Origin: Patiria pectinifera
Lineage: Eukaryota; Echinodermata; Asteroidea; Valvatida; Asterinidae
Assembly: GCA_029964075.1 (NCBI GenBank)
Contig: CM057142.1
Coordinates: 573,770-637,769 of the forward strand
DNA length: 64,000 nt
Direction: 5' to 3'
Below are positions 10,727-63,863 of this stretch, in pieces (the first letter of the stretch is position 1; each line of letters starts with the position of its first letter). Under the pieces are notes generated by a model. That model was not told the DNA's origin. It was given only the letters and a program-made list of their open reading frames with translations, and did no database searches. The position numbers and the translations under genes were made by a program.

Positions 10727-13700
10727 TCAACTGCCACCGCTAGCAGCACCTGTGTCCCGGGTCGGTTCCGGTTCTTTAATGGATGTCTCTAGGGCCAAGG
10801 GAGTCAGCCATTCCTTGGGTAGCATCTTCTCCATGAAGGGAAGGCGGGCACCAACGGTCGCTAGTCGGTTGATCCAGCTGGGGATGTCTCGCCGGCACAG
10901 GATCTGGAATCGAGTAAGCAATCACACGTCCAGTTTACCGGCTGTGGCTAGCAGTGATACACATGTCTATGGACAGCGATTGAGCCGCTTCCATAGAGAC
11001 GCATTTATAATTGTAAGCCGTAGTCAATTAATTTGGAGACGGCCCAAAGTTACAAATTTAGTTGCCACTTTTCAAGAAAGAAAACTCAATCGAAAATGGC
11101 ACTTTTTTCAAGTTGTGATTTCCCCCACATGGGTGTGGTGTTCTGACTGTGTGTGTAGATGACACTGTTCATGGTGACACATTAGTTGACAGTGACAGGA
11201 TTTTTGCAGGAAAGAAGATTGATGTTGTTGAAGGAAAATTATCAGGATTGCCCCTCCCAATCTAAACCCCCAATTAACCCTAACCCTTCTCAATCCTCCA
11301 AAATCCTCCTTGTGGTTTTGGATGATTTTGGAGGATTGAGGCTGAATGGTATTTTTTTTTAGATAAGGATTTTGGAGGATTGAGGCTGAATGGTATTTTT
11401 TTAGATAAGGGTTTTGGAGGATTGAGGCTGAATGGTATTTTTCAGAAAAGCATTTTGGAGGATTGAGGCTGAATGGTATTTTTTTAGATAAGGATTTTGG
11501 AGGATTGAGGCTGAGTGGTATTTTTTTCAGAAAAGGATTTTGGAGGATTGAGGCTGAATGGTATTTTTCGGAAAAGGATTTTGAAGGATTGAGACTGAAT
11601 GGTATTTTTTTAGATAAGGATTTTGGAGGATCGAGGCTGAGTGGTATTTTTTTAGATAAGGATTTTGGAGGATTGAGGCTGAATGGTATTTTTTCAGAAA
11701 AGGATTTTGGAGGATTGAGGCTGAATGGTATTTTTTCAGAAAAGGATTTTGGAGGATTGAGGCTGAATGGTATTTTGAGGCAGGACTGTCTGACGATTTT
11801 GAAGGATTGAGGGGCTGGGTACCCTTCATTTGAACATACAAGTGCAACATTTTTGGATGAGGAGGATTTTGGAGGATTGAGGATGAATGCATTTTGGGGC
11901 AGGACTGTCTGAAAATTTAGAAGAATTTAGGCGCTGTTGTAAAATTTTAGAGGATTTTGGAGGATTGAGGATGGTTCCTAGCAAAAACGCCTAGGAGGTT
12001 AGGGTTAAGAAACACCCATGCTCTTATTGTAAATGGTGACAAGTTCTAGGATCCACCTGGCCGTTAACTATCTTTAATTCCAGAAGTAAAATTGGGATAA
12101 CAAAAGAATCACATGAACTTTGGCAGTAGTTAAAGGGAATATACATCATTTGCTTTTGCTGTAATTTTCAGAAATGGATGGAATTGGGGGGGTTGGAAAT
12201 ATATATCAAATATAGTTACACTGACTTTTTTGAGGTTTTGGGTTCGAAAATGCTATAAAAACCAAGAAAAACAATCATTTTCCTGTAGTCTGGTTCCCTG
12301 ACTCCATATAAGAAGAAACAGAGCAGTTTACATACATTGGGGAATTGTAAGGTCAGGGAACCAGTCTAGCTGGCTCGTACCCGTTCATAGGTTTGTAATC
12401 GATTGCAAACAAGTGCGATGGTCAATTGGGGCCAGTATTTGAAAAAAAGCCAGTTTTTTCCAACGCTGATCGGCCGATCAGCATTGGAAATTGATACAAA
12501 AATACCACTTTTCTTGAAAAAAATGACAGTATACCAGGTGCCATGATTTTACAGGATGCTTTACACTTTTATTCACTAACAGTCCAGCAAGGTATTTGAA
12601 AACGATTTGGTAGTTTTATTTTTTGATGTTTGCAAATGTTGTATTTTCCCTTTAAGTACATGCATGTTCTCTTTTAAAACTGCACAATCCTAGAGGTCAT
12701 ACATGAAAGTGGTGCAGTGAGCAGTGAAACAGACATTTTGATGACTGAAATGAGGTATGATAACCGAACCGGTGACTCCGAGTGGCAACGGCTCTAAATG
12801 ACTCGGAGGAATAAAATCGAAATCATCACCCGTCACGATAAGACTTCCTCTTATAATCACCCCTGCTTCTCTACTATCTCTCAACTCGCTCAACTCGCTC
12901 GCACCCGTTTCTCCTTCAATAAACTTTAAAGCCAATTCCTCACCTTCAAAGATTTTTCTTTCTCTAACAAATAATATTCTTACTAAAGATTGAAGCGTAT
13001 TAAGTTCTAATTCAGTTTTTGGTATTTCTGAATTCATGGCGGCTAAAATCAACCCTCGCCGTTCAGCTATAATGGCTCTTTTTCTTTTGTTTGATTCTAA
13101 AACGGATTCTAGTCTATCGTCTTCGTACGCTTTTATAAGATCGTTTATAGTTTTTTGTAAAACATTTTCATCGTTAAATAAATAGTGGTATGGTATGGCA
13201 CAGTAGCTCACAAGCCTAAAGAAACCTGTGGAGAGAAGACAATGAGAAGAAGTTACAGTTTTAGAGGTGGGAGGAAAAGCCCAGAAGAATAGTCTGGGGA
13301 AAACCTGCGGAATCAGGTAGGGGCTGAAAACCCAATCCACATATTGGCCCAGGCGGGATTCGAACCCGGGTCACAGCGGTGGAAGGCGAGGAAAGTACCG
13401 CTACGCCAACCTGACACCCCTTAGTTTCACATGTAACAACGATGAAAACTGGACCCAATTCAATGAAGCATTTAGTCGGTTTGATGATAAAAGTGTACAA
13501 CATCCTCCGATCAAGATTCAATAAAGATTTCATTTCGTTCATGAAGGGATAACAGACGTTGGACAGGAAGCTAAGAAAACTTGATTTATGGAGGTGATGT
13601 GCTACGTTCTGAATCATCTTTATAAAGAGCATGGATAAAAGAAAAATGATATGTGGAATAAATCACACACCTGTACTAACTCCTGAGCAAAGTGGTTGCA

Positions 13701-27789: not shown

Positions 27790-30710
27790 TGACTACGGCA
27801 AGCCTTCTGGCCCACCACGCATCGTCCCGGCCACGCGCCCTCGAGGCCTCACGTCACAAGCGAAAATCTGGCCCCGAAAATGACCAAAATAAGCCCCCTA
27901 TAAAGTCTCCCATTAAAATATTGAGATTGAAAGGGGTTTGTCTAACCTTGACTCTGTCCTACACAACAGGAGAAACAAGAAGATTGGTGGCTTGCTTGCC
28001 AAGCAACAGCAACGCAGACACAGACGTTTCAGACGTCCTAGGTCCCCATCTACCACGCCACCGCCAGAACCCCCTGTCAACACTGTAGTTAATCTTTCTT
28101 CCTCATCAATATCTGACGCAGAGCACAAACTTCTCTCCAAGGGTCTCAATTTTTGTCCCGCTCCCCGTTCTGTGAACCAGGTTCAGCTCAGCCAAGACCT
28201 CACGGAATACTACCGTAGAATCCGTCTGCGTGAGTTTTTCCTGGACAGTGAACCGTGTGAACCTGAGCCTTTTCGAGTCAAGAGTTCATGGGTACCCCCC
28301 AAGAATCGTGTGCCAGCCATAGAGACATACGTTCAAGTTATCAATTCCCAAGTCACTAACCCGGACAACTTCCCCCACAGGACTCATGATAATCTCCCCA
28401 GAGAGGAGCGCCTGGCTCTCAACTCCTTGCGCTCTCGCACCGACATCATCATCAAGCCAGCAGATTAAGGTTCAGCTGTGGTCATCATGGATCGTCAGCA
28501 GTACATTGATGAGGCCCACCGCCAGTTGGATAATCGCACTAACTATACCCGCCTTGACTCTGACCCCACAGGCACTTTCTGTCGAGATATACAACAGGTA
28601 CTTGACGATATGCGATCACGTGACCAGTTGTCCAAGAAAGCTCACAAATTCCTTTCTCCCTGTGATTGTAGGACTGCAAGATTTTACCTTCTACCCAAGA
28701 TTCACAAGGCTGGCAACCCCGGTAGACCCATCATCTCCGGTAATGGCTCACCCACAGAACGCATCTCCCTGTTCATTGACAGTTTTCTCAAACCCCTTGT
28801 CCCACAGATTTCGTCATACATTCACGACACCCCAGACTTCCTACGCAAGCTTGAAGGAATCAAGGACCAGATTCCCAGCACAGCCATCATTGGGACTTTC
28901 GACGTCTCATCTCTGTACACCAACATCCCACATGAGGAGGGTGTTCGTGCTTGCTCCTTGGCTCTGGCCAAGGCAGGACACACGACTCCTCCCATCAGTG
29001 ATGTTGGCACCCTCATGAGACTTATACTAACGAAGAACAATTTTTCCTTCCTTGGTGAACACTATCTACAGGTACACGGCACCGCAATGGGCACTCGCAT
29101 GGCCCCTTCCATGGCTTGCCTCTTCATGGGTGACCTCGAAGAACGCATGCTTGCCTCGGCCCCATGTCGCCCTTGGATCTGGTGGAGATATATTGATGAT
29201 GTTTTTCATCTGGACCAGTGATGAGGACAGTCTCTTGACCTTCACTAACCACATCAATTCCTTCCACAGAACCATCAAATTCACGTCGGAGTTCTCGGCT
29301 CACCAAACCCACTTTCTGGATGTCACCGTCCGCAAGCAAGGCAACTCACTAACCACTGACCTGTATTCCAAACCCACAGACACCCACCAGTACCTCCACT
29401 CCTCCAGCTGTCACCCCAGGCACTGCAAAACTGGCATAGCGTTCAGCCAGGCACTCAGACTCAGAAGAATTTGTTATAATGATTCCGATTTCTCCCGCCA
29501 TACACAGATACTGAGGAACAACTTGGTGGCCAGGGGTCACAGCTCTCGCCAAGTTCATCGTGCCATTGCCAGAGCTAAAGCTATCCCCAGAAATCTAGCC
29601 CTCACGGGAAAGGCCCATGATGCCATGGCCAAACCCATGATTCCCTTGGTTACCACGTTTCACCCCAATCTCCCTCCCCTTCGCAAAATCACAAATGACA
29701 ATCATCATATCCTCCATACTTCAGATCGCCTTGCCCGCGCCATCCCCAACGGCCCCACATTGGCTTACAGGCGTCCTCGAAATCTACGGGACCTGATTGT
29801 TCGAGCTGAAGTCCCATCCTTAGATGCATCCTCCCACCCAGCATGGTACTTTCAAGTGCAGTTCCAGATGTGTTGTCTGCCAGATTCATATCCAGGAGTC
29901 TGACTCCTTTTCTGGCCACTCTTCTGTCACTACCCACAGAACCATTGGTAACATCACTTGTAACACCTCTAATGTCATATATCTCATTTCTTGCAGGGTC
30001 TGTGGAGTGCAGTATGTAGGTGAGACTAAGAATACGCTCAAGAAGCGTTTCTATGCCCACCGGTCAACGGTCAACACCAAGAAACTAGACACCCCTGTTG
30101 GTCATCACTTCAACGTGCCTAACCACTCCATTTCTGATATGATTTTGCAGGGCATTGAATCTCTTGGCCATCGCAAGGACTCAGTTCGCCTCAGCAGAGA
30201 GAAAGTGTGGATGAATCGTCTTCGAACTATTCAACCACATGGTCTCAACATCCAACTAGGGAATGATTAATCCTTTTCTTCCTCCATTGTCTTCTGTTAC
30301 AGATAATCCACCTGGTCTTCCTTGTTTGTGTTTACCCATCTTCCCCCATCTTTCATCCCTTTCCCCCCCCATACTGTTTCCCCCCCCCCCCCATCATCAT
30401 CACTCTCACACTCTTTTGTCCGTTCCCACTCCCTGTGACCTTTGATCCTTCCCCTTTCTGATCCCTCCCCTGTTTACACTAGACCCCTTGTGGTTTGCCA
30501 TCTCCCTTTGTTCCTTTGTTCTCTCATCCACCCTCCCCTGCATCTTTCCACACCTTTCCCACCTAATCCTCCTTTTGTGTTTCTTCTTTCAGCCCTGCAT
30601 GTTTGTGTGCACCCCCATGTTAATGTTTGTACCTCTGTCATTTCTGTTTTAGCCTCTGAAGAAGAACTTGCTAAGTTCGCAACGTCAGGCCACATTAATT
30701 TTTAGATTAA
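27790..30710 (+). mobile_element. Penelope-like element (GIY-YIG class), broken
   Basis: Fossil retroelement of the Penelope-like class, plus strand. Parts in order: a basic N-terminal region (about 27.8-28.4 kb); a reverse transcriptase region (about 28.5-29.3 kb) showing YLLPKIHK, TFDVSSLYTNIP, HGTAMGTRMAPSMA and RYIDDVF; a connector; then a GIY-YIG endonuclease region (about 29.8-30.27 kb) with an upstream Cys cluster and VIYLISCRVCGVQYVGETK. A C/T-rich 3' tail follows to about 30.7 kb. It is not whole: the coding region is broken in at least two places. The motifs are well kept, so it is probably of moderate age. Outer ends are approximate and no terminal repeats were recognised. Confidence 0.85.
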
Positions 30711-35400: not shown

Positions 35401-36302
35401 TTGTTAGCTTTTTTTGTGAAAATTAAAATTTGGTATTTTATGGAAATTAACTTAGGGGCTCGTTTTGGGTAAATTTTCCGGGGACAGACCTACCGACCGA
35501 CCAACCGGCGACCGACCGACCACGAAGTGACATGTAGAAGCTCCTGCCAGAGCTTAAAAAAATACGAACTTGCTTCATCCAGGGATAAAGAGAATGACAA
35601 GTGGGTAAAACGACATTCATCTGAATTTTGCTTAATATTGGTGGCAATGTTTTTCCTCTTTTTTTCATCGTCATGTTTTCGTTTTGCATGCATCATTCAA
35701 GTTGGCAACTCACGGTCATACGTTCAGATTATTAATGTTTCGAATGATTTTGCTCTTGCTTCTTGCGTTACACTTTTTGAATAAAATGAACTGTGAGTGT
35801 GATAAATTTTACCGGTTGTGTTGTTAATTAGGAAAAACCGATCCCAAGGTTTCCAAATTCGCGCGCTCAAAATTAAGCCTGAACTCTTCACTCAAAGTCA
35901 GTTTTTCAAATGTCTGTTTGTGTCATTTCTATGGTTCTTCCCGTTTGTATGGAAACGCGTCCTTCTGGTTGATTGTTTTATCGTTCAAGCTTGTACGTAT
36001 AATAATTGCAAGCTAGTTATAATAAATCATACTCGTATACTGTGATCGATGTTTCATTGCGAGCAGTCTTTCAATAATAGTCTGCAAAGTTTGTAGCATA
36101 TGAATAATTGTTCCCATTCGTATGGAAGCGCGTCCTTCTGGTTCATAATTAATACGTCGTTAGGCTTGTACTTGTTAATAGTATCATGGAAATAGGCCTA
36201 ATTGGAAAGCAATTGTAATGAATCATCTTCCTAATCGGTGATAATAATTGCGAGCTATAAGGCGTTTTTCTCCACTTGCCTCACGATTCTGACACATACA
36301 AG
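35401..36302 (+). other. Lectin 5' flank with duplicated motif
   Basis: No gene is seen here. Two related tracts (about 35.93-36.06 and 36.11-36.26 kb) each contain a version of CGTATGGAA(A/G)CGCGTCC-TTCTGGTT followed by TTGTAC and a TAATAATTGC-type segment. The same tracts flank the lectin copy at 54.2 kb. They may be promoter repeats. Confidence 0.45.
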
Positions 36303-36866
36303 ATGCGAATCCCTGGAACTTGTTCGTTTGTTCTCCTCAAGATGATGTTTTCTTACTGGGTGACTCTGGGCTCCATCCCCTGTCCACCCACCTGGCAGGC
36401 ATTTCAGGGGACTGGGTACTACGTGCATTCGGTTCCCATGACCTGGGCCCAAGCCAAGGAACTCTGTCAGAAGATGGGAGGCAACCTGCTGATGCCCAAG
36501 TCATCTGAGGAGAACGCGTTCGCCGACGCTCTGCTCGAGGGACGCGGGGCGAAATCGGCTTGGTTCGACTGCAGTGACAGGGTGGAAGAAGGCAAATGGC
36601 TGTGTTCAGATGGAACGCCGTCGAACCATCTCCCATTTCACAACACAGCATCTAACCATGGAGATAGCCAAGCCGCGGATTGCGGGCTGATCGAGACCGT
36701 GGACGGCAAATGGTACGCCGCACCGTGCGACCAGGAAACGACTACCGTGTGCGAGAGAGAAGCGACGGTACAGCAAGCCAGCCTCGCCATGCGCTGCATG
36801 ACCCTAGGAGAAGACGGTCGTCCAATAAACGATGGACAGTGCATTCACAATCCTCCACTCAAGTAA
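36303..36866 (+). CDS. Secreted single-domain C-type lectin-like protein
   Basis: A single open frame of 187 residues starting at MRIPGTCSFVLLKMMF. An upstream in-frame ATG at 36276 would add nine residues ahead of the signal peptide and is less likely. Residues 1-24 form a signal peptide. The C-type lectin-like domain spans about residues 25-153: Cys27, WQAFQGTGYYV, MTWAQAKELCQKMGGNL (Cys55), WFDCSD (Cys90), GKWLC (Cys101), ADCGLIE (Cys127), GKWYAAPC (Cys142) and VCERE (Cys150). The EPN/QPD and WND motifs are not present, so calcium-dependent sugar binding is doubtful. A 34-residue tail follows with two more cysteines. Such small lectins act in invertebrate immunity or coelomic fluid; the ligand is unknown. 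A broken copy is at 54.2 kb. Confidence 0.85.
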   Translation: MRIPGTCSFVLLKMMFSYWVTLGSIPCPPTWQAFQGTGYYVHSVPMTWAQAKELCQKMGGNLLMPKSSEENAFADALLEGRGAKSAWFDCSDRVEEGKWLCSDGTPSNHLPFHNTASNHGDSQAADCGLIETVDGKWYAAPCDQETTTVCEREATVQQASLAMRCMTLGEDGRPINDGQCIHNPPLK

Positions 36867-41292: not shown

Positions 41293-41364
41293 GGTTGGAT
41301 AGTTCAGTTGGTAGAGCATCGGAACGGAAATCCGAAGGTCTGAGGTTCAAAGCCCCATCCAGTC
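41293..41364 (+). tRNA. tRNA-like sequence, probably not functional
   Basis: A 72-nt cloverleaf can be drawn: acceptor GGTTGGA with TCCAGTC (G-U pairs), an A-box-like TAGTTCAGTTGGTAGAGC, a good anticodon stem with loop ACGGAAA, and a T arm TGAGGTTCAAAGCCCCA. The loop has C where U33 is expected, a GGA anticodon would need a class II serine tRNA, and no T-run follows. A tRNA pseudogene or SINE head fits better. Copies at 44736-44807 and 59144-59215. Another tRNA-like 3' half (GCAGGTTCAAGCCCCGCTCC) lies about 300 nt upstream in each copy. Confidence 0.4.
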
Positions 41365-41823
41365 AATGTCTTTGTTCACACAATTCAGCTGTCCACCACT
41401 GAGCATTTTATGAATACCCATTATTCAACACAATGAACATTGACGTTTCCTGCCTCCATGAATAAACGAAAATTTGCAAAAAAAACCCGCCAAATATCGA
41501 CATCAATATTTCAGGGGAAAACAAGTTGACATGTTCCTCATAGTCAAAACCCAAAATCTGACAGTCAAAATAATGTTTCAGTCTTTCTCCCAAAATTTGC
41601 AGTACCACTCTGCATGCTAGAATGACTCTTCCAACTTTCTGCACCCTCTAAAAATTGGCTTTTCATGAAAGGTTTGCCCATTCAGCTTGTGATTGGCTGT
41701 TTCTGAACTGCTCAGGTTCCTGGATTGGCACAATTTTTTTTTATGGCATTCTGTACAATAAGTAATTATCTGGCTAATTCAGCTATACTTTATAGATATT
41801 CATGCAAGACAAGCACTGTCAAA

Positions 41824-44735: not shown

Positions 44736-44807
44736 GGTTGGATAGTTCAGTTGGTAGAGCACCGGAACGGAAATCCGGAGGTCTGAGGTTCAAAGCCCCA
44801 TCCAGTC
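44736..44807 (+). tRNA. tRNA-like sequence, copy B
   Basis: Same 72-nt sequence as 41293-41364, with a fully paired anticodon stem CCGGA/TCCGG. The same objections apply: C at the U33 position and no terminator T-run. Confidence 0.4.
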
Positions 44808-44815
44808 AATGTCTT

Positions 44816-47577: not shown

Positions 47578-48810
47578 TTACAACTCTCGTGTAAGTATAC
47601 CATACGGTCTGACATGATAAATACCATTCTCAGGATCTTGCATGGGGGATAACCAGTAAGGGAAATCAGCATGGCCTGTTTTCTCCGGTGGAATCACCTC
47701 AAGGTGATTCGGGTCTACCCGATTCTGAAGGGCAAACTTATATCTCTTACCGTCTTTAGTAAATTTTTTCGTGTAGCGATGCTCATCTATCTTCTCTAAG
47801 TTGGGGCTGGAGTAGACCGCTCGACCGAAGCGCTCTCTTGGACCAATTTTGTAGCCTGCCCCCAATATTGGTTTCACGCAACGTTTTTCCGTGCCATGGT
47901 AACTAACTGCCCACTCACCAGGACTTGAGTGGGTGCGAATGCCGTTGTTTCCCAGCCACGTGTCGTTCTCATACTCACCGTGCACTTTAACTGCGTAGCG
48001 TTTCCATCCATATGGGCGCTGGTAGACTTCACCACCTCGCAGGTATGTCTTCCCATCATCAGATTTATCTGTAAAGTCGTAGTCGTACTGTGGGTCCAGA
48101 TTAGAGGGATCAAGTTCAAAAATGCCCATCTGTTCGCCAGGGCTGCATTTCATGCCAAATATGGTGCAATCACCACGAATTCCCAGGTATTTGATCTCTT
48201 CGTGATCCTCAAGTTGGCTGCCGTTGAAGATAAGCATCAGTCGCCGGCGGGGAAGGCCTAGCTTGTTCGCCGCCTGCTTCCTCACATCCGCGACGGTCGA
48301 GTTGATATTGACATCCAGTGTGATACTTTTGTTCATCTTGAGCATGTGTATGTCCACTCTTATGGATTGATCATTACCTTCATACACGAATCCATTTTGG
48401 GGCTGAGAGTATATCATTGAGGTCATGCTGAAGAGATCCTTGATGCTAAGCCGAGTGGCACTGTGTGCAGCTTGAGCTGCTGCTGCAGTTGCAGGGGCTG
48501 TTGTAGGGGCTGCTGCAGGAGCGCGAAACACGCGGCGAGCCTCATTGTAATGAATCCCCCGCCTTGGGCACGGAAAGTACTCTCGCACGCGTGCGGTACT
48601 ACCCCCGAAAAACCAGCTAAAAAAGAGATCATCAATCCATTTGATCCAGGCACGCCACTTATGACGGGCGCACTGGTCCTCGTCTAAGAGGCACCCAGAG
48701 CATCGGCGGGCTTGTGGGATTGGACTCTGAATTGGACTCTGGATGTTCAGCCCTGTCGAAGCTGAAAAGCCTGAGGAGATGATTTCTGCAGCAAGGGGAG
48801 AACCCGCCAT
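47578..48810 (-). CDS. Ubiquitin-like plus ADP-ribosyltransferase-like domain protein, unit 1
   Basis: An uninterrupted single-exon frame of 410 residues starting MAGSPLAAEI. A Cys/His cluster C37-x2-C40-x6-C47-x2-H50 is followed by a Trp-rich segment (KWRAWIKWIDDLFFSWFFGG) and an Ala-rich linker (about 95-118). A ubiquitin-like domain lies at about 149-222 (ITLDVNINSTVADVRKQAAN, RLMLIFNGSQLEDHEEIKYL). The C-terminal region, about 264-405, has VSYHGTEKRCVKPILGAGY and FGRAVYSSPNLEKI, recalling the His and Tyr motifs of PARP/ART folds (His305, Tyr333). Similar Ub-like/ART-like architectures occur in marine invertebrates, amoebae and fungi from memory. Enzyme activity, substrate and location are unknown. 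No signal peptide. A near-identical copy lies at 62631-63863. Confidence 0.8.
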   Translation of the reverse strand: MAGSPLAAEIISSGFSASTGLNIQSPIQSPIPQARRCSGCLLDEDQCARHKWRAWIKWIDDLFFSWFFGGSTARVREYFPCPRRGIHYNEARRVFRAPAAAPTTAPATAAAAQAAHSATRLSIKDLFSMTSMIYSQPQNGFVYEGNDQSIRVDIHMLKMNKSITLDVNINSTVADVRKQAANKLGLPRRRLMLIFNGSQLEDHEEIKYLGIRGDCTIFGMKCSPGEQMGIFELDPSNLDPQYDYDFTDKSDDGKTYLRGGEVYQRPYGWKRYAVKVHGEYENDTWLGNNGIRTHSSPGEWAVSYHGTEKRCVKPILGAGYKIGPRERFGRAVYSSPNLEKIDEHRYTKKFTKDGKRYKFALQNRVDPNHLEVIPPEKTGHADFPYWLSPMQDPENGIYHVRPYGILTREL

Positions 48811-49055
48811 TTCATTAGTAGCCTATAGTGGTCGCTAGGTGTTGTTAAAACCAAGAAGGGGAAGTGCAGACTCAGTCTATGTAATGGCGAAAGCTTGGCT
48901 CCGTGGATAACGGGTGCTATGACTCAGACTATAGTGCAGACACGCCACGCCCCGGCCTCTGAAACATGATTGCGTGCGTGGACAACATGATTGCGTGGTG
49001 GTGGAATTCCCCTACGCTCCAAGTAAGGGATCTTGTAGAATTTCCGAAATTGTCT
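48811..49055. other. 5' flank of the Ub/ART-like gene
   Basis: The first 140 nt recur beyond the unit 2 gene at 63864-64000, so the large duplication continues past the window end. No TATA box was recognised. Confidence 0.5.
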
Positions 49056-49230
49056 CCGTCCGACGCCGCATAAGTACGACGCCGCATAAGTCCGACGCCT
49101 CATAAGTCCGAAACAACGTTTGTCGGACCTATGAGGCGGAATTAATGCCTCATAAGTCCGATGCCTCATAAGTCCGAAATGTCGGACTTATGAGGCGTCG
49201 GACCTATGAGGCGTCGGACTTATGATACGG
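49056..49230. repeat. Foldback array of GTCCGA-GCCTCATAA units
   Basis: 15-bp units built on CATAAGTCCGACGCC run rightward, then meet inverted units (GTCGGACTTATGAGGC). The layout resembles the foldback at 37855-38190 but the unit differs. Absent just before the end of unit 2 as far as visible. Confidence 0.7.
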
Positions 49231-53944: not shown

Positions 53945-54191
53945 CTATTGTGATCAGTCAGTTTGTCAAGCTTCATTTCCGGTTAGGGGACTTGTTTGTT
54001 GTTCCCGTTCCTATGGAAACGCGTCCGTCTGGTCATCATTTGCATCGTTCAGGCTTGTGCTTTGTAAAATGTCATGGTAATAATTACGAGCCAGTGTTAA
54101 TAAATCATATTCGTTATACTGTGACCCATATTTAATCGTGAGTTATAGCGTTTTTCGCCACTTGTCTCGCAATATTAATGACACAGTCAAG

Positions 54192-54755
54192 ATGAGACTT
54201 CGTGGACTCTGTTCCTTTGTGCTCCTCAAGTTGATGTTTTCTTGCTGGGTGGCTCTGGGCTCCATCCCCTGTCCACCCACCTGGCAGGCATTTCAGGGGA
54301 CTGGGTACTACGTGCACTCAGTTCCCATGACCTAGGCCCAAGCCAAGGAACTCTGCCAGAATATGGGAGGCAACCTGCTGATTCCCAAGTCATCTGAGGA
54401 GAACGCGTTCGCCAACTCGCTGCTGCAGGAACGCGGGTCGACTTCGGCTTGGTTCGACTGCAGTGACAGGGTGGCAGAAGGCGAATGACTGTGTTTAGAT
54501 GAAACGCCGTCAAACCACCTCCCATTTGACAACACAGCATCTAACCATGGAGATAGCCAAGGCGCGGATTGCGGGCTGATCGAGACCGTGGACGGCAAAT
54601 GGTACGCCGCACCGTGCGACCAGAAAACGACTGCCGTGTGTGAGAGAGAAGCGACGGTACCGCAAGCCAGCCTCGCCATGCGCTGCATGACCCTAGGAGA
54701 AGACGGTCATCCAATTAACGATGGACAGTGCATTCACATTTCTCCACTCAAGTAA
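54192..54755 (+). pseudogene. Unit 2 C-type lectin copy, broken
   Basis: About 564 nt line up over the full length of the intact lectin at 36303-36866, starting MRLRGLCSFVLLKLMFSCWV. Two tryptophan codons have become stops: TAG in the MTWAQ segment after about 47 residues and TGA in the GKWLC segment. The rest, including the C-terminal cysteines and terminal stop, is well kept, so the loss looks recent. Expression is unknown. Confidence 0.9.
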
Positions 54756-55597
54756 ACAACGAACTTTATTTTCCTCGAAAATTGGCGACTTTTGAAGTGA
54801 TAAACTTCGCCTATTTGCAAAGGAAAGCTTGATAGTCTTTACGTGCAAAGTTGAATAGTGTACAAACCAACTCTAGTTTGCGTTTTTGGTTATACTCATA
54901 TTCAAAGTGGCTGATATAATTATGTAATCTTTCAACTATGTTCTTTTGTACATCGAGACACTCCAAATTCAACGATTTTAAACCAAAACTGCACCTCATT
55001 CATCTGGTGATGAGCAGAACCAATGGCAGCTAAATCGTTACTATGGCAACAAAGTGATATTACTCCCAGCTGGACTGAATGCGTGTTATTTCTGAACGAT
55101 TGAAAATTTACCCTGAAACAACTGAGAAAGAAATACCATTCTGTCATAACTTAGGTTTAGAGTTCAATTAATTCTTTCTTTTCAGGCAGTGAAAGTTCAG
55201 TTGTTTTCAATGAGAGAACTCTTTCTGCATATTTGCTGTCAGTATTCTCGAGTTATTTTGACAAACTTATATAAAGCATGAAACTGCTCAGCAACATACA
55301 AAGATGTATAGTGGGTTTCCCGCCAAAATTTTAAACTGAAAGAGTACGATGTATTTAATGATGTTTTCCATTTGGCCAGGTTAACGGAAAAAAGGGGCGC
55401 TGTTTGTTTATGTTTTTTGCAACAACATAATCCTCTTCAATACTGCACTGACAGGGCGTATACAGATAGGCATGTAGATTATACCATTCGTTCATCCGAA
55501 AAAAAGATGATCAGCTTTACAAAGCTTCAATAATTTTCGGGATAAAAATAAGAAAATAATTATTAATAATGATTCAACCAGAATATCAAAATAATTG
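54756..55597. other. Unit 2 lectin 3' flank
   Basis: Matches 36867-37736 with small indels; the purine-rich tract near 37.53 kb is shortened. No gene is seen. Confidence 0.7.
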
Positions 55598-55670
55598 AAC
55601 AGCGACCTCCCATTTCAAAACTCAGCATCTAACCAAATAGCCAAGACGCGGATTGCGGCTTGTAGATAAC
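55598..55670 (+). pseudogene. Lectin exon fragment, unit 2
   Basis: Counterpart of 37737-37815 (CAGCGACCTCCCATTTC, then AAATAGCCAAGACGCGGATT), a few bases shorter. Confidence 0.65.
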
Positions 55671-55704
55671 AATTCCAGCCGCGTACATAGCCCCCCCCCC
55701 CGGG

Positions 55705-56056
55705 ACGTCTCGATAGTCCGACGTCCCATTGGTCCGACGTCCCATTCGTCCGACGTCCCATCGGGTCCGAAGCCCCATTGGTCCGAAGGCCCATTGCTCT
55801 ATACGTTCCATTGGTATAAACGTCCCATTGGTCCGAAGTCCCATTTGCCCGAAGTCCCATTGGTCCGAAGCCGCATTGGTCCGAAGTCCCATTGGTCCGA
55901 AGTCCCATTGGTCCGACGCACCATAGGATTAGGGTTAGGGTCAGTCAACCTGCTAGTGGAACTACATGTACATGCACAATATTATGTTTCGTCGGACCAA
56001 TGGGACTTCGGACCAATGGTACTTCGGACCAATGGGACTTCGGACTATCGAGACGT
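55705..56056. repeat. Foldback element, unit 2 copy
   Basis: Counterpart of 37855-38190, with one additional CCCATT(C/G)GTCCGACGT-type unit on the left side. Confidence 0.75.
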
Positions 56057-57197
56057 AATATACCCCCCCCCCCTGGCGTTTACTTGAATTCCATCTCCTC
56101 CCAACCGGCCGATGACCTATCAGCCTCCTGAAGATTTGTGAGCATTTGTTGAGGATTCTCCCTCGTTGACCCCTTTAAAATGCTGGTGTTCCCCCCTAGA
56201 TACTATCCACTGAAAAGACCACTGTTTGGCATGCGCTTATGCATGACCGCGTCCATTTTGGTCTTTATAGGGTGCAGACCTGTACTCTCACAGACCTCCG
56301 TTTTAATTACGCGCACTTCCAACAAAAATATTCAAAATTCTCACAACTCGGGTTCCAAGATGTTTGAGACACCCATCAGAAATTAAAGCTCATTTTATCA
56401 TCTTTCTTTTTCTGATCATTTTTTTGGGGGGTAATCAATGACCTTTGGGAGAAGTTATCAAGGAAACGCGAAAACTCGGACGGTAACTTTAAGCTTCCGT
56501 AAAATATACAAACGCGCGATTTTGATGAGTTTTTGATTCGATGCACAAAACTAAAGTTTCTTCCTTTATTCTTGAAAAGTTGAAGTAGCCCAACAGAGTA
56601 AGAAGTTGGAGGGGTAAGTCCTTCCTGTAGGCTCCACGTAAGTAAAAAAGAAAGTGTCCGAAATGGAAAAAAAAATATTTAAAAAAATATGTGGCTCGCT
56701 CCATTTCATAAAAACAACATAAAAGTACATGTCATTGACTAGTTACCGTAAAAATGCCCGTATTTTGCAAACTCTACTTCCAAGTTATGTCCATTTTTAA
56801 TAAAATGATCACACAATTCAGCTGTCCACCACTGATCATTTTATGAATACCCATTATTAAACACAAATATCGACATCAATATTTCAGGGGAAAACAAGTT
56901 GACTTGTTCCTCATAGTCAAAACCCAAAATCTGACAGTCAAAATAATGTTTCAGTCTTTCTCCCAAAATTTGCAGTACCACTCTGCTTGCTAGAATGACT
57001 CTTCGAACTTTCTGCACCCTCTAAAAATTGGCTTTTCATGAAAGGTTTGCCCATTCAGCTTGTGATTGGCTGTTTAGTCTGAACTGCTCAGGTTCCTGGA
57101 TTGGCACAATTTTTTTATGGCATTCTGTACAATAAGTAATTATCTGGCTAATTCAGCTATACTTTATAGATATTCATGCAAGACAAGCACTGTCAAA
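56057..57197. other. Unit 2 non-coding tract
   Basis: Nearly identical to 38191-39331. No gene recognised. Confidence 0.7.
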
Positions 57198-57531
57198 CAA
57201 GGGCGGATCGGGGGGGGGGGCCAAAGGGGGCCATGGCCCCCCCCCCCAAAAAAAAACGAAACCAATATTTTTTTTTTGTTATGTGACATCGCAATAAAGG
57301 CAGGAAATGAGTACACCACCATCTTTTCCTCAAGAAAAAATTGGTTAAAGTGGTCAGAAATTGCCTCAGATCGCACCACAGAGCATCTAGAATCCAAAAA
57401 AAATTCGGGGCCCTTAAGCGGGCCCCGAACCCCACGCCGTAATTTTTTTGACCCACTTTTTGGGGGGACCAAATTTTTTTTGGCCCCCCCCCCAAAAAAT
57501 TGTGTTCTGGATCCGCCCTTGCTGTCAAAAA
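57198..57531. mobile_element. hAT-like MITE, CAAGGGCGGATC family, unit 2
   Basis: Same insertion as 39332-39650, with the CTGTCAAA duplication at 57190-57197 and 57532-57539. Differences are mostly in homopolymer lengths. Confidence 0.85.
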
Positions 57532-58148
57532 GCAATTGCAATTCTGAAGTAGTCATTGTAGCATAGATAGTCGTAATATGCACATGTTGTATAATTACAG
57601 TTCAATAAAACAATTGAGTCTGTGGCATCCTCCTTATTTATTCCTACAATTGTAATTTGTAAATAAGAATCCCAAATTAAGACTATAAGATTATAATTGA
57701 TCTTTTAATGATAAAATGTAATAATAAGTTTACTAACACTGAATGGATAGGCTTTAATATTTATACAGTATTATAGGCGCATATACCATCGGCTTTAGTT
57801 ATGATGAACAACGTTAATTCTCATTCTACTACTAGCTTCTTATTGTAAGACTCATCTACTACATGTACTTACAAAACTCCTTTGAGAGAAAACAATTACA
57901 TAAAGCTATAACAACAGCGCTTACCATTTTAAGAAGTCATATTAACAAGAGAATAAACATTATATTATTCATCTCAGGCCTGACTGCCAGGGAACGGACT
58001 GACTCCCGTATAATGCCAATTTCCTCCCCCCCCCCGGCCCAATTTTTTAATGACCCTGCTGCATGTACTTTAGTTTAACTATTTAGTTTCATTAATTTGT
58101 TTTCAGACCAGGACTGTTGAGAAAAAAAGTAATATTTTATTGCGATAA

Positions 58149-58511
58149 GGCCAAAAAAAAAATAAGTCGGTCTCTGGTCAGCGCGCGCGTCGATTTTAAT
58201 CATGAGCGTCGATCTTTTTTTCCCCAAAATGTTCCGCGGTAGCTCCAACAGCGCCCTCTATTTCCGCACCTCCTCATTTTTGTTTTACCAAAGCGCACCA
58301 AGGAATGGGAAATTGCACCAAGGCAAATGATCGAAAGCACCAAGGCAAATTATGGAGGACACCAATGTACATGAGGACATCAAAACAGCAAAATAGTACC
58401 CCACCTTGTCTGTACAATCCAAGCTTGAAGGAAAAAAAAAAAAAAAAGCCGCGTGGCCGCGTCAATTCCGGAACTTTGGTCTGACCAGAGACCGGATATT
58501 TTTTTTTGGCC
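58149..58511. mobile_element. PIF/Harbinger-like MITE, unit 2
   Basis: Same insertion as 40279-40661, with TAA at 58146-58148 and 58512-58514. Confidence 0.85.
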
Positions 58512-59143
58512 TAAACTTCATTGCGTTTCAGCCATATACAATTATTCGGCTCCGTGCAAAATAGCACGCATGATACACGTGCCCAACTCATTAATACGTA
58601 ATTACCGGTATAGTTGCTTTTTATTACCAACGTCAATACTGGACATTCCTGCTTGTGTGAAAATCCACTTGTTTCTCAGGCAATTTAAACGAACTTAAAT
58701 CTTAAAACATAACCATATTTGAGAGAAAATCCATGCAAACTATCTAGATAATGCCATTTCTTCGTTCAAATTTTTATTTTTTTTATGTTGAAGTTTTTTC
58801 TGTTGACGGATTACATTTTGATTATTTTAAAACCAGAACAAGAGGTTAGACCTTCATTATAGTAAATCGCAGGTTCAAGCCCCGCTCCAGTCTTTGTTCA
58901 GTTTTTCAATACATTGTTACAATTCACCTCGTCAGTTTCCCTTTGTAGTTCATTTCAAAATAGGTAATACAAGGCCGTATATCCTCTCTGAGTGATCCCC
59001 GTTTGCTATTCCCAGGTACACTAGTCTGCATCGTGACTATGGGTGTGGTCCCTGGCTACACGGCATTACACGGGTTGTGGCGTCTGACTAGCGACCCTTC
59101 ATTTGAACAAAGATATTGACCAATTGAGGTACCGCCAACATAG

Positions 59144-59215
59144 GGTTGGATAGTTCAGTTGGTAGAGCACCGGAACGGAAATCCGGAGGTCTGAGGTTCA
59201 AAGCCCCAGCCAGTC
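59144..59215 (+). tRNA. tRNA-like sequence, unit 2
   Basis: Counterpart of 44736-44807, with a T-to-G change in the 3' acceptor strand (CCCCAGCCAGTC) that weakens the acceptor stem. Further evidence against function. Confidence 0.35.
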
Positions 59216-59223
59216 AATGTCTT

Positions 59224-62200
59224 TGTTCAACATTTTTATTACTTTATACACATACAATTTCGTTTTGACAAAAATAAGTCGTAACTATACAGTGCATGTA
59301 AATACGAAGTACAAGTAAAATATAACAAAGATTGTTTCCAAAGTTCAGAATAAGACAGAGATATACACAGGATGAGTTGAAAAGAACTTGACTGAGTTAT
59401 GATTTCAAAATTCATTATAACATAAGAATAAAGTACATATTTCTAACTATAGAGCAACTGTCAATGTTTTTAGGTATATTGTATACTCTATTTACAAGTT
59501 ATTTTAATCGAAATAACACAAAACTCAGCTGTCCACCATATACATGTAGTACTACTGATCATTTTGACACCGATACGAATCGATGAATATCCTTTAAATA
59601 CAATGAACAAAAAGTTGCAAAGGAAAGAAGACAAAAATCACCATTCTCATTTCAGAAAAAAAACATGATTTGTTCCTCATATACAAAACACAAAATATGA
59701 CAGTAAAAATAATGTTTCAGTCATGACTCTTATTAAATCTCAGTTAGATATGAACGCATGTAATCTCTGATTGTCACTCGGCTAAATACTTCAAAGCAGT
59801 AAGCATTCCATGGAGAGCTTAAACGAGCTTAAAAATACTGCAAGTTAAACTAGACTTGCGCGACCCCCTGGCATGCTGGCAGTATTTATCATATGTCGGC
59901 ACTAAACAGTTGAACTAACCTAAATTAACAGTGACCTCATTTGACCCCACGATGACCTTTGACCTCAAATGTCTCAAGTCATCTGAAGTCCCCCTACCCA
60001 AAGATTATTGTCACCAAGTTTGATTGAGATTGAAGTCTGACTTTTCATATGACAGCACTAAACAGTTAACCTAACTAAAATGGAACACACAGTCGTGAAT
60101 TTCTATACACCTGAGGACAATGCTTTGTGTTTCCCGTTGTCCCTGTAATATAACACTCTCCCATGGATTAAGCACCTAACCGTATGATCGAGGACCGTTT
60201 TCAACAAAAGACCCAACGCTCGAGGACTGAAAGGATCTCCCCTCGTGTATCTGTCCTCTATCGTAAAGCCATACAAAGTCATGTACACCCCCTACACACA
60301 CAGAAGGAATACACTATCGCAATATCCCCCTTTAAGAGGATAATAAAAGCCAGTCGATTCTTTCAGTAAAACATGGATCACTTCTGATAACAAAGATCTT
60401 TTTTTTCAGAAGATTGTAAGAAATGCTCGTTTAAAATTGCTTCGTTTGTTTATCAATTGTGATTGCTGTTTTAAGGTAAAACAACATTAATCCCGGTCAC
60501 TCTTTTTTGACTCACCCCGACTATCGCTACAATGCTACATTACAAGTTACAATGTATATTCATTCTACTAAACTTTCTAATAAATATGTATCGCATTGTA
60601 CAAGTATTTTTGTTTTGTTTATTTAAGTGTTTTTACTATTATCAACAATATTCTTCCTCACGATCAACCCACATCTCACGATAAACTCATATTATCTTTT
60701 ACCAAGTGATGGGTAGGTCAGGTTTGATAAAAAAATTGCAATAATTCAGTAACATAAAATGAAGCCAAATAGCCATTTCTTTATACACTGCATGGCAAAC
60801 TTCATTTTTAGGTATTTCAGAATAGAAGCATTCTTTGTGTGCGCACAATGAGTAATTCCATTCGCTTCGCACGTCACTCTTTTTTAATCACAAATTTATA
60901 TGGATAGGTTTAAATCGTCTTGCAGTTTGTAATAACGTATATTACATTTGCAAAACAAACGGACGCTTAGAAATTGCAATCCGTGTACAGTACATGCTTT
61001 TTTTTAATCTCTGTTCCCCGACCGCAGACCAAATTGCAATTGTCGTGCTGGCAAGAGACTATAAAACTTCATTTCTCAGCTTTGATGACTGAACACTTAT
61101 ACAGCGTGTCCCAAAAAAAATGTCCCTCTCATAGACCACAGAATAACTTTGTACCAAAATCAAGTTTTATACTCAATTAAGTTTACATATTTAGAAAGCC
61201 CACTTAATTTTGTAGTTCCTGTGAAAATTTCAAAGGTCTCGCTTCATTGGTTTTGAATACACAGGCTTTTATGTAACAGCAGTGCTTTCCGGCCCATTCC
61301 AAGTTTGATGAAAAGAAATGCACACTACAGACATACCATACCTTATTCCATGCTTCACTTTTATTTCAACAACTGTGTTCTTGTTTTGTTATTAAGTAAC
61401 TAAAGTCAAGTTCATTTAATTTTTTCAAATGAAAACTAATCAAAGTTCAGTTTCACTGGTCGAGTTTGCTTTCACAGGGTGTGTTCCACTTATGGTTTGT
61501 ACTTCAATGTCCAGCTTGTAAACCTTTATTGTCCTCCTGCACATCCTTCCACCTGCAAACTTGGAATGGGCTGAAAAGCACTGCTGTGACATAATAGACT
61601 GTGTATTCAAAACCAATGAAGTGAGACCTATGAAATTTTCACAGAAGTTACAAAATTAAATGGGCTTTCTTAAACTGAACACTAAATTGAGAATAATACT
61701 TGATTTTGGAATTAATTTAGCAGTCTATCAGAGGGACATTTTTTTTTGGGACACGCTGTATTAGATCGTCTATGTAATGTAATTTGTTTTAATACAGCCC
61801 TTGTAAATGCACCTTCGTTTCCCATCTCACCTTATTTTTTAAATTTTCATGTTGCCATTTTTAAGGGCATTTTGAAACCTTTTTGGTTTTTACGATAGTA
61901 CAAATTTGCATATTCATGATCAAAAGTGTGATGTCATTTCAGGCAGAAACAGCTACTTCAGCACCAAAATCTGCCAGGATTTTGGATATTTAGCTGTCAT
62001 TAATTTTCTTTTCTTTGGTGATTCGATGGTGTTTCAATACAAGTCATGACAGTTGGCCAATGAACAACGTTTCTCACAAAGGTTTTTCAATTAGCAAATT
62101 TTTGAACAGAAAATCCCTTAACTGGAACAGTGTTTTACTGAAATGACATCACAGCAACAGCGCCGTTATTCGTCAGGAAAAGCACGGACAATTTAAAATG

Positions 62201-62630: not shown

Positions 62631-63863
62631 TTACAACTCTCGTGTAAGTATACCATACGGTCTGACATGATAAATACCATTCTCAGGATCTTGCATGGGG
62701 CATAACCAGTAAGTGAAATCAGCATGGCCTGTTTTCTCCGGTGGAATCACCTCAAGGTGATTCGGGTCTACCCGATTCTGAAGGGCAAACTTATATCTCT
62801 TACCGTCTTTAGTAAATTTTTTCGTGTAGCGATGCTCATCTATCTTCTCTAAGTTGGGGCTGGAGTAGACCGCTCGACCGAAGAGCTCTCTTGGACCAAT
62901 TTTGTAGCCTGCCCCCAATATTGGTTTCACGCAACGTTTTTCCGTGCCATGGTAACTAACTGCCCACTCACCAGGACTTGAGTGGGTGCGAATGCCGTTG
63001 TCTCCCAGCCACGTGTCGTTCTCATACTCACCGTGCACTTTAATTGCGTAGCGTTTCCATCCATATGGGCGCTGGTAGACTTGACCACCTCGCAGGTATG
63101 TCTTCCCATCATCAGATTTATCTGTAAAGTCGTAGTCGTACTGTGGGTCCAGATCAGAGGGATCAAGTTCAAAAATGCCCATCTGTTCGCCAGGGCTGCA
63201 TTTCATGCCAAATATGGTGCAATCACCACGAATTCCCAGGTATTTGATCTCTTCGTGATCCTCAAGTTGGCTGCCGTTGAAGATAAGCATCAGTCGCCGG
63301 CGGGGAAGGCCTAGCTTGTTCGCCGCCTGCTTCCTCACATCCGCGACGGTCGAGTTGATATTGACATCCAGTGTGATACTTTTGTTCATCTTGAGCATGT
63401 GTATGTCCACTCTTATGGATTGATCATTACCTTCATACATGAATCCATTTTGGGGCTGAGAGTATATCATTGAGGTCATGCTGAAGAGATCCTTGATGCT
63501 AAGCCGAGTGGCACTGTGTGCAGCTTGAGCTGCTGCTGCAGTTGCAGGGGCTGTTGTAGGGGCTGCTGCAGGAGCGCGAAACACGCGGCGAGCCTCATTG
63601 TAATGAATCTCCCGCCTTGGGCACGGAAAGTACTCTCGCACGCGTGCGGCACTACCCCCGAAAAACCAGCTAAAAAAGAGATCATCAATCCATTTGATCC
63701 AGGCACGCCACTTATGACGGGCGCACTGGTCCTCGTCTAAGAGGCACCCAGAGCATCGGCGGGCTTGTGGGATTGGACTCTGAATTGGACTCTGGATGTT
63801 CAGCCCTGTCGAAGCTGAAAAGCCTGAGGAGATGATTTCTGCAGCAAGGGGAGAACCCGCCAT
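62631..63863 (-). CDS. Ubiquitin-like plus ADP-ribosyltransferase-like domain protein, unit 2
   Basis: An intact 410-residue single-exon paralogue of 47578-48810. By my count there are ten differences: T72A, G85E, V142M, N237D, E261Q, V274I, N288D, R327L, P384T and S388C. The Cys/His cluster, ubiquitin-like core, YHGT and AVYSSP motifs are unchanged. Five of the changes (V274I, N288D, R327L, P384T and S388C) fall in the ART-like region. Both copies lacking stops or frameshifts while the linked lectin decayed suggests this gene is kept by selection; that is inference. Confidence 0.8.
   Translation of the reverse strand: MAGSPLAAEIISSGFSASTGLNIQSPIQSPIPQARRCSGCLLDEDQCARHKWRAWIKWIDDLFFSWFFGGSAARVREYFPCPRREIHYNEARRVFRAPAAAPTTAPATAAAAQAAHSATRLSIKDLFSMTSMIYSQPQNGFMYEGNDQSIRVDIHMLKMNKSITLDVNINSTVADVRKQAANKLGLPRRRLMLIFNGSQLEDHEEIKYLGIRGDCTIFGMKCSPGEQMGIFELDPSDLDPQYDYDFTDKSDDGKTYLRGGQVYQRPYGWKRYAIKVHGEYENDTWLGDNGIRTHSSPGEWAVSYHGTEKRCVKPILGAGYKIGPRELFGRAVYSSPNLEKIDEHRYTKKFTKDGKRYKFALQNRVDPNHLEVIPPEKTGHADFTYWLCPMQDPENGIYHVRPYGILTREL

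What the first reader, a model, noticed from the sequence alone, without database searches (positions are those of the whole stretch)
47578..48810. Single-exon protein joining a Cys/His cluster, a ubiquitin-like domain and an ART-like C-terminus
The sequence shows C-x2-C-x6-C-x2-H near the N-terminus, a Trp-rich patch, a clear ubiquitin-like core, and a C-terminal region with YHGT...GAGY and a later AVYSSP resembling the H and Y motifs of PARP/ART folds. A ubiquitin-like module built into a possible ADP-ribosyltransferase would be an unusual modification system. The catalytic assignment is inference from short motifs.
Basis: partly seen in the sequence, partly recalled or inferred. Interest (0 to 1): 0.75.

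Follow-up and report, generated by a model that had tools for sequence, protein, structure and literature searches.

The report
Ubiquitin-like domain fused to NEURL4-type ADP-ribosyltransferase
What looks like an animal genome carries three tandem copies of a gene whose protein joins a ubiquitin-like domain to an ADP-ribosyltransferase-like domain of the NEURL4 type, which suggests, but does not show, an enzyme that links two protein-tagging systems.

Summary
The open reading frame is real: 410 codons, minus strand, 47578-48810. The genome holds two more intact tandem copies, one in the window (62631-63863, 98% identical), one 17.5 kb beyond it (85%). The ubiquitin-like domain is confirmed (PF00240, E=1.4e-10). 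The Cys/His cluster is not conserved (C37 and H50 lost in copy 3). The C-terminus has no significant single-sequence match in the libraries searched. It is homologous to the C-terminal ART-like domain of NEURL4 from the same genome: score 92, maximum 67 in 2000 shuffles. A profile of both has human PARP3 as best PDB hit (E=0.019), HGT on HGT and GRAVYSSP on GKGIYFAS; a reversed profile finds no ART. So H305 and Y333 are probably the motif I His and motif II Tyr. The motif III Glu of NEURL4 is probably Y385 here, giving H-Y-Y, the triad tabulated for the mono-ART PARP16. Best reading: a free-standing NEURL4-type ART with an integral Ubl, probably a mono-ADP-ribosyltransferase, otherwise a pseudo-ART. 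Structure prediction failed, so fold and pocket are untested.

The parts
47578..48810 (-). Copy 1, 410-aa Ubl-ART protein (the finding)
   Evidence: intact frame, 100% self match in own genome
48661..48702 (-). C37-x2-C40-x6-C47-x2-H50 cluster; not conserved in copy 3
48607..48657 (-). Trp-rich segment, residues 52-68; W52, W55, W58 and W66 invariant in the 3 copies; possible membrane or protein docking helix (inference)
48157..48333 (-). Ubiquitin-like domain, residues 160-218
   Evidence: Pfam PF00240 E=1.4e-10, 41.2 bits, cut-off 25.4; ubiquitin chains in PDB
47581..48039 (-). NEURL4-type ART-like domain, about residues 258-410
   Evidence: similarity to own-genome NEURL4 C-terminus; PARP3 profile hit
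47896..47898 (-). H305, motif I His of YHGT
   Evidence: aligned with HGT of NEURL4, PARP3 and own-genome PARPs
47812..47814 (-). Y333, motif II Tyr of GRAVYSSP
   Evidence: aligned with GKGIYFAS of PARP3 and GKGSYFA of own-genome PARPs; Phe in own NEURL4
47656..47658 (-). Y385, probable motif III position (Glu in NEURL4 'KIEW', Tyr here 'FPYW'); conserved in 3 copies
   Evidence: motif III placement is inference from a weak part of the alignment
48822..48826 (-). candidate 3' splice site (AG at 48823-48824) where similarity between copies 1 and 3 ends
   Evidence: (BLAST end at 48826)
62631..63863 (-). Copy 2, 410 aa, 98% identical

Best explanation
The gene encodes an intracellular, free-standing NEURL4-type ADP-ribosyltransferase (no Neuralized repeats) with an integral ubiquitin-like domain in front of it. 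The ART domain binds NAD+ through H305 and Y333. With Tyr instead of Glu at motif III, it would at most transfer a single ADP-ribose to a target (mono-ART, as tabulated for the H-Y-Y enzyme PARP16). The Ubl is not a modifier to be conjugated, because it has no C-terminal Gly-Gly and is followed by another domain. It would act as a docking handle that brings the enzyme to the proteasome, p97 or ubiquitin ligases, so that targets or ubiquitin-pathway partners are ADP-ribosylated there. The divergent N-terminus with its Trp-rich segment probably sets location or partner. Shown: frame, three copies, Ubl, homology to the NEURL4 ART-like domain, and H/Y register with PARP3 in a profile hit of modest E-value. 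Inferred: fold, NAD+ binding, mono-transfer, cellular place, Ubl docking, N-terminal role.
For: Ubl by Pfam. Similarity to the own-genome NEURL4 C-terminus: Smith-Waterman score 92, against a shuffle mean of 31.5, sd 4.9 and maximum of 67 in 2000; 44 of 150 aligned columns identical. The alignment shares, in order, YxRPxGWxxxAxK, WxVxxHGTxxxxVxxIL, SP, AxQxRVxPN, W, PYxxLxR. Profile search of 177,635 PDB sequences: top of 4 hits is human PARP3, E=0.019, HGT on HGT and GRAVYSSP on GKGIYFAS; the reversed profile gives 14 hits, none an ART, best E=0.57. Against 5 own-genome PARP domains, the hhalign score of the joint profile is 25.9, versus mean 12.0, sd 2.3 and maximum 20.3 for 200 column shuffles, and 12.2 reversed. 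The published NEURL4 ART-like domain is tabulated H-L-E, and NEURL4 loss is reported to remove almost all mitochondrial PAR synthesis (a review passage). PARP16 is tabulated as H-Y-Y with mono activity.
Against: No Pfam or NCBIfam ART/PARP match. Absolute statistics for the ART link are modest: PARP3 E=0.019, hhalign probability 15%. Taken apart, the two halves of the profile do worse: hhalign 18.75 for the three copies alone and 20.35 for NEURL4 alone, below or about equal to the best shuffle of the joint profile. The query alone finds nothing in PDB at E<=10, nor does NEURL4 alone. Genome-wide, the NEURL4 domain finds the three copies only at E 0.16-0.48, and the query did not list NEURL4 at E<=10. 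The motif III placement is weak and needs a loop 6 residues longer than in NEURL4. No structure was obtained. No expression or biochemical data. Within Ubl plus ART, constraint between copies 1 and 3 is not significant (7 of 168 versus 11 of 612 sites, p=0.08).
Confidence: 0.5

Rival explanations
1. Pseudo-ART: the domain keeps the ART fold but not catalysis, and serves as an NAD+/ADP-ribose reader or as a protein scaffold next to the Ubl, like PARP13 or the proposed pseudo-ARTs TASOR and LRRC9.
For: Motif III Glu apparently absent; no match to ART profiles in Pfam; precedents PARP13 (tabulated inactive), LRRC9 and TASOR (title in a search listing).
Against: His of motif I and Tyr of motif II are both kept in 3 of 3 copies, unlike LRRC9 (both lost) and PARP13 (His lost); Tyr is present here where own NEURL4 has Phe; the PARPs with H-Y and a non-acidic third residue are tabulated as mono-active.
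Confidence: 0.38
2. The C-terminus is not an ART fold; NEURL4 and this protein share a different domain with an HGT motif.
For: No significant single-sequence match to any ART; predicted structure not available.
Against: PARP3 is the best of 177,635 sequences with both motifs in register and a reversed control is negative; the hhalign controls agree; published AlphaFold/Foldseek work finds NEURL4 similar to the PARP1 ART domain at E around 1e-2 (passage).
Confidence: 0.07
3. Non-functional or mobile by-product: a recently duplicated open frame spread by segmental duplication without a protein function.
For: Copies 1 and 2 differ by 10 nonsynonymous and 0 synonymous changes; the surroundings are duplicated in blocks.
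Against: Three intact 410-codon frames; copy 1-copy 3 length changes keep the frame; fewer nonsynonymous than synonymous changes per site overall (p=0.009); Ubl and ART motifs kept in 3 of 3.
Confidence: 0.05

Closest known systems
NEURL4 (Neuralized-like protein 4) C-terminal ART-like domain
   Same: Homologous C-terminal domain with the same ordered motifs; His of motif I kept.
   Different: No Neuralized repeats here; intronless coding frame, whereas the own-genome NEURL4 stretch used is spread over four exons; Tyr at motif II (Phe in own NEURL4, L in human); Tyr instead of Glu at motif III; a Ubl is attached.
PARP16 and other mono-ART PARPs with H-Y and a non-acidic third residue
   Same: His/Tyr in motifs I and II with non-acidic motif III; PARP16 is tabulated H-Y-Y, HGS/YLT/PKY.
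   Different: No Pfam PF00644 match; other flanking domains (recalled for PARP16, apart from its membrane anchor).
Clade 6A fungal PARPs with a UBCc (E2-like) domain; DTX3L/PARP9; PARPs with UIMs
   Same: Known physical pairing of ADP-ribosylation with ubiquitin-system domains (passages; DTX3L/PARP9 from a reference title).
   Different: Those carry E2, E3 or ubiquitin-binding parts; here a ubiquitin-like domain itself.
Integral-Ubl proteins (Rad23/ubiquilin type)
   Same: Internal, non-cleavable Ubl; TIGR00601 Rad23 is a weak hit through the Ubl only (E=0.05).
   Different: No UBA domain among the Pfam hits; ART-like C-terminus.

Membership tests
Ubiquitin-like domain (PF00240) | profile match above the curated cut-off | tested here: met
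   41.2 bits, cut-off 25.4, E=1.4e-10, residues 160-218
Conjugatable ubiquitin-like modifier | C-terminal Gly-Gly exposed after processing | tested here: not met
   extending the ubiquitin alignment without gaps, K221-C-S-P-G-E226 stands at the LRLRGG tail; 184 residues follow
NEURL4-type ART-like domain | sequence homology to the NEURL4 C-terminal domain, motifs in order | tested here: met
   score 92, maximum 67 in 2000 shuffles; alignment A2; genome-wide E only 0.16-0.48
NEURL4 protein | Neuralized (PF07177) repeats | tested here: not met
   no PF07177 hit in P0001; own NEURL4 taken as the locus on C6 with 14 of the genome's 19 PF07177 matches
PARP family (PF00644) | Pfam PARP catalytic profile match | tested here: not met
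   not among the hits at E<=10, within HMMER's filters
ART superfamily, H-Y-[EDQ] clade | motif I His (HxS/T) | tested here: met
   H305-G-T307, aligned to PARP3 HGT
ART superfamily, H-Y-[EDQ] clade | motif II Tyr | tested here: met
   Y333 aligned to Tyr of GKGIYFAS
ART superfamily, H-Y-[EDQ] clade | motif III acidic residue (or Gln) | tested here: inconclusive
   aligned position is Y385, Glu in NEURL4; alignment weak there
ART superfamily | ART fold | not tested
   structure job failed, then tool switched off
ART superfamily | NAD+-dependent ADP-ribosyl transfer | not testable with these tools
   needs an assay
Zn-binding Cys/His finger | conserved four ligands | tested here: not met
   C37 and H50 absent in copy 3

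The most novel reading that the evidence does not exclude
A compact animal enzyme that carries its own ubiquitin-like domain and uses it to place a NEURL4-type, H-Y-Y mono-ADP-ribosyltransferase on ubiquitin ligases, proteasomes or ubiquitin itself. It would be a lineage-specific, duplicating effector (possibly immune) with a fast-changing N-terminal targeting part, and would show that the NEURL4 ART domain is a portable catalytic unit.
Probability: 0.2. Interest if true: 0.7.

Novelty: new variant of a known kind. Interest (0 to 1): 0.45.

Why it matters
NEURL4 is a diverged human ART-like protein, reported in reviews to be needed for mitochondrial ADP-ribosylation (passages), and its ART-like domain sits in a 1,562-residue protein. 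A 410-residue relative with Tyr at motif II and a built-in Ubl would be a small, testable protein for asking whether NEURL4-type domains are enzymes. It would also be a direct physical link between ADP-ribosylation and the ubiquitin system.

Tried and rejected
Zn-finger reading: rejected, two of four ligands are missing in copy 3.

Relatives in viruses, phages, plasmids and prokaryotes: none found. Viral scans with P0002 and with A2 gave 0 confirmed of 2 and 0 of 34 candidate stretches. One genome-contig scan gave 0 confirmed of 36. A WPVSYHGT-type DNA pattern gave 2 viral and 2 bacterial stretches, all four chance by translation. A PxGWx[RK]xA[LVI]KV pattern gave 17 viral stretches, 0 of 17 with HGT/HGS downstream. 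tblastn gave 0 phage and 2 insignificant plasmid matches (E 0.3 and 3). PHROGs gave none. These scans need short exact stretches (tblastn and PHROGs apart) and are not sensitive to remote relatives.

Weak PADLOC hits (Cas1e E=0.0013 over residues 72-185, PDC-M42A E=0.047 over residues 302-362) were not followed up.

Other own-genome relatives: the WxVx[FY]HGT DNA pattern had 10 matches, of which only NEURL4 and the 3 copies are real by translation; the pattern read backwards gave 11, so the count itself is no enrichment. P0002 gave one further insignificant match (E=3.55), the NEURL4 domain one (E=3.45).

Organism: no COX1 match at E<=1e-10 in the assembly, so phylum not determined. 'Animal' is inferred from a NEURL4 gene with many Neuralized repeats and introns.

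Papers: De Souza and Aravind 2012 was not looked up (seen only as a reference); Aravind 2015 and Cardamone 2022 are not held. Whether they already list Ubl-NEURL4-ART fusions is unknown. My library searches around such a fusion showed none in their listings; that is no proof of absence. From PMC7955679 I saw abstract, passages and one section; from PMC8195603, PMC8946771, PMC10789625, PMC9503650, PMC3482391, PMC9149570, PMC10450202, PMC8003356, PMC2964712 and PMC11354881 passages only.

Full report
The frame. Window 47578-48810 on the minus strand is an uninterrupted 410-codon frame. The window lies on a 54.9-Mb contig of a 613.5-Mb genome in 1020 contigs. A search of that genome finds three copies of the gene in tandem on one strand: this one, window 62631-63863 (98% identical) and C14:655305-656534 (85%), 17.5 kb beyond the window's end; all three are intact. 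The window also holds other duplicated blocks: 36108-41378 matches 53999-59229 at 94.5%, and 46.7-48.9 kb matches 61.8-64.0 kb at 97.9%.

N-terminus. The Cys/His cluster is C37, C40, C47, H50. Copy 3 has F37 and no His at position 50, so a four-ligand zinc site is not conserved. The Trp-rich stretch W52/W55/W58/W66 is kept in all three. The N-terminal 150 residues diverge strongly between copies 1 and 3 (dS 0.37, dN 0.23), while the Ubl and ART parts do not (dS 0.02 and 0.05). This looks like a mosaic, perhaps from gene conversion (inference). Similarity between copies 1 and 3 ends 16 bases before the ATG, at an AG that could be a 3' splice site; 'single exon' is therefore true for the coding frame seen, not proven for the transcript.

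Ubiquitin-like domain. PF00240 matches residues 160-218 (E=1.4e-10), and ubiquitin chains lead the PDB list. Read off the printed alignment: the isoleucine at ubiquitin 44 is kept (I194) and Lys48 is Ser (S198); extending it without gaps, there is no Gly-Gly tail, and 184 residues follow. It is an integral Ubl, not a modifier.

ART-like domain. The C-terminal 154 residues match nothing in Pfam or PDB by single-sequence search at E<=10. Recalling that NEURL4 has an ART-like C-terminus (confirmed in passages of PMC7955679, PMC10450202 and PMC10789625), I located NEURL4 in the same genome: 14 of 19 PF07177 matches lie within 20.5 kb on C6. I spliced four exons downstream of them. The two domains align with score 92, against a maximum of 67 in 2000 shuffles, 44 identities in 150 columns, and share an ordered set of motifs. 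As a genome-wide search the same similarity is not significant (E 0.16-0.48; NEURL4 not listed), so the case rests on the pairwise shuffles and the motif order. Pfam gave no model for that NEURL4 stretch at E<=10, as PMC7955679 also says of the family.

Link to PARPs. A profile of the three copies plus NEURL4, run over 177,635 PDB sequences, gives 4 hits at E<=10. Human PARP3 is first (E=0.019), with WHGTNMAVVAAILTSG on YHGTEKRCVKPILGAG and GKGIYFAS on GRAVYSSP; the other three are gp130 chains at E 0.59-0.7. The reversed profile gives 14 hits, none an ART (best E=0.57). Against five PARP domains from the same genome, hhalign scores 25.9 for the joint profile, versus 12.0 +/- 2.3 (maximum 20.3) for 200 column shuffles; its stated probability is only 15%, and the copies alone or NEURL4 alone score 18.75 and 20.35. 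Each test alone is modest; together they support ART membership.

Active site. H305 and Y333 fall on motifs I and II. For motif III, NEURL4 has KIEW, its Glu 11 residues before P of PYALLI. Own-genome PARPs have xI[YF]V, the Ile likewise 11 residues before P of PEYLI (sequences). Here FPYW has Y385 17 residues before P of PYGIL. Thus NEURL4 probably keeps Glu but lacks Tyr, and this protein keeps Tyr but lacks Glu. PMC7955679 tabulates human NEURL4 as H-L-E and PARP16 as H-Y-Y with mono activity. The spacing argument is my own reading and was not given a statistic.

Distribution. Among the places these searches showed in this genome, only the three copies and NEURL4 carry the WxVx[FY]HGT domain: 7 of the 10 pattern matches were read and the other 3 are the copies; the protein searches agree. 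The genome has canonical PARP fragments besides (28 PF00644 matches at E<=1e-5). No relative was found in viral, phage, plasmid or prokaryotic collections with the limited-sensitivity scans used. No eukaryotic protein database was available.

Selection. Copies 1 and 2: 0 synonymous and 10 nonsynonymous changes (chance of no synonymous change among 10: 0.08). Copies 1 and 3: about 37 of 272 synonymous, 77 of 946 nonsynonymous (p=0.009); within Ubl+ART 7 of 168 and 11 of 612 (p=0.08). Constraint is visible but mild.

What could not be done.

Verdict. I rate it a new variant of a known kind, with the reservation that unread papers may already list this fusion. My confidence in ART homology is about 0.9, in catalysis about 0.5.

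Noticed in passing
window 47578-48810 vs 62631-63863: The two copies differ by 10 nonsynonymous and no synonymous changes. The nearest 3' flank (1.3-1.6 kb from the ATG) differs by 0-2%, that at 1.6-2.1 kb by 3-12%; recent conversion or selection on the protein is possible.
   Followed up: partly
window 47578-48810 vs L003:1498-2730: Mosaic divergence: about the first 500 bases clearly different (9-43% per 100 bases), most of the rest nearly identical.
   Followed up: partly
window 27917-30270: Penelope-like retroelement remnant (name recalled): reverse transcriptase (RVT_1 E=4.4e-6, just under cut-off) followed by a GIY-YIG domain (E=4.4e-6).
   Followed up: no
window 36261-36866: C-type lectin exon (PF00059, E=4.3e-21) inside a block duplicated at 53999-59229; state of the second lectin copy not checked.
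   Followed up: no
window 1346-3329: CCDC97-like gene in at least two exons (PF09747).
   Followed up: no
window 41293-41365, 44736-44808, 59144-59216: Three tRNA-Ser(GGA) predictions inside duplicated blocks that are 94-98% alike, perhaps a tRNA-derived repeat.
   Followed up: no
window 49050-49230: Clustered direct and inverted copies of a CCTCATAAGTCCGA-like word just upstream of copy 1 (read by eye).
   Followed up: no
window 11324-11936: Short repeat array (82-92% between overlapping copies).
   Followed up: no
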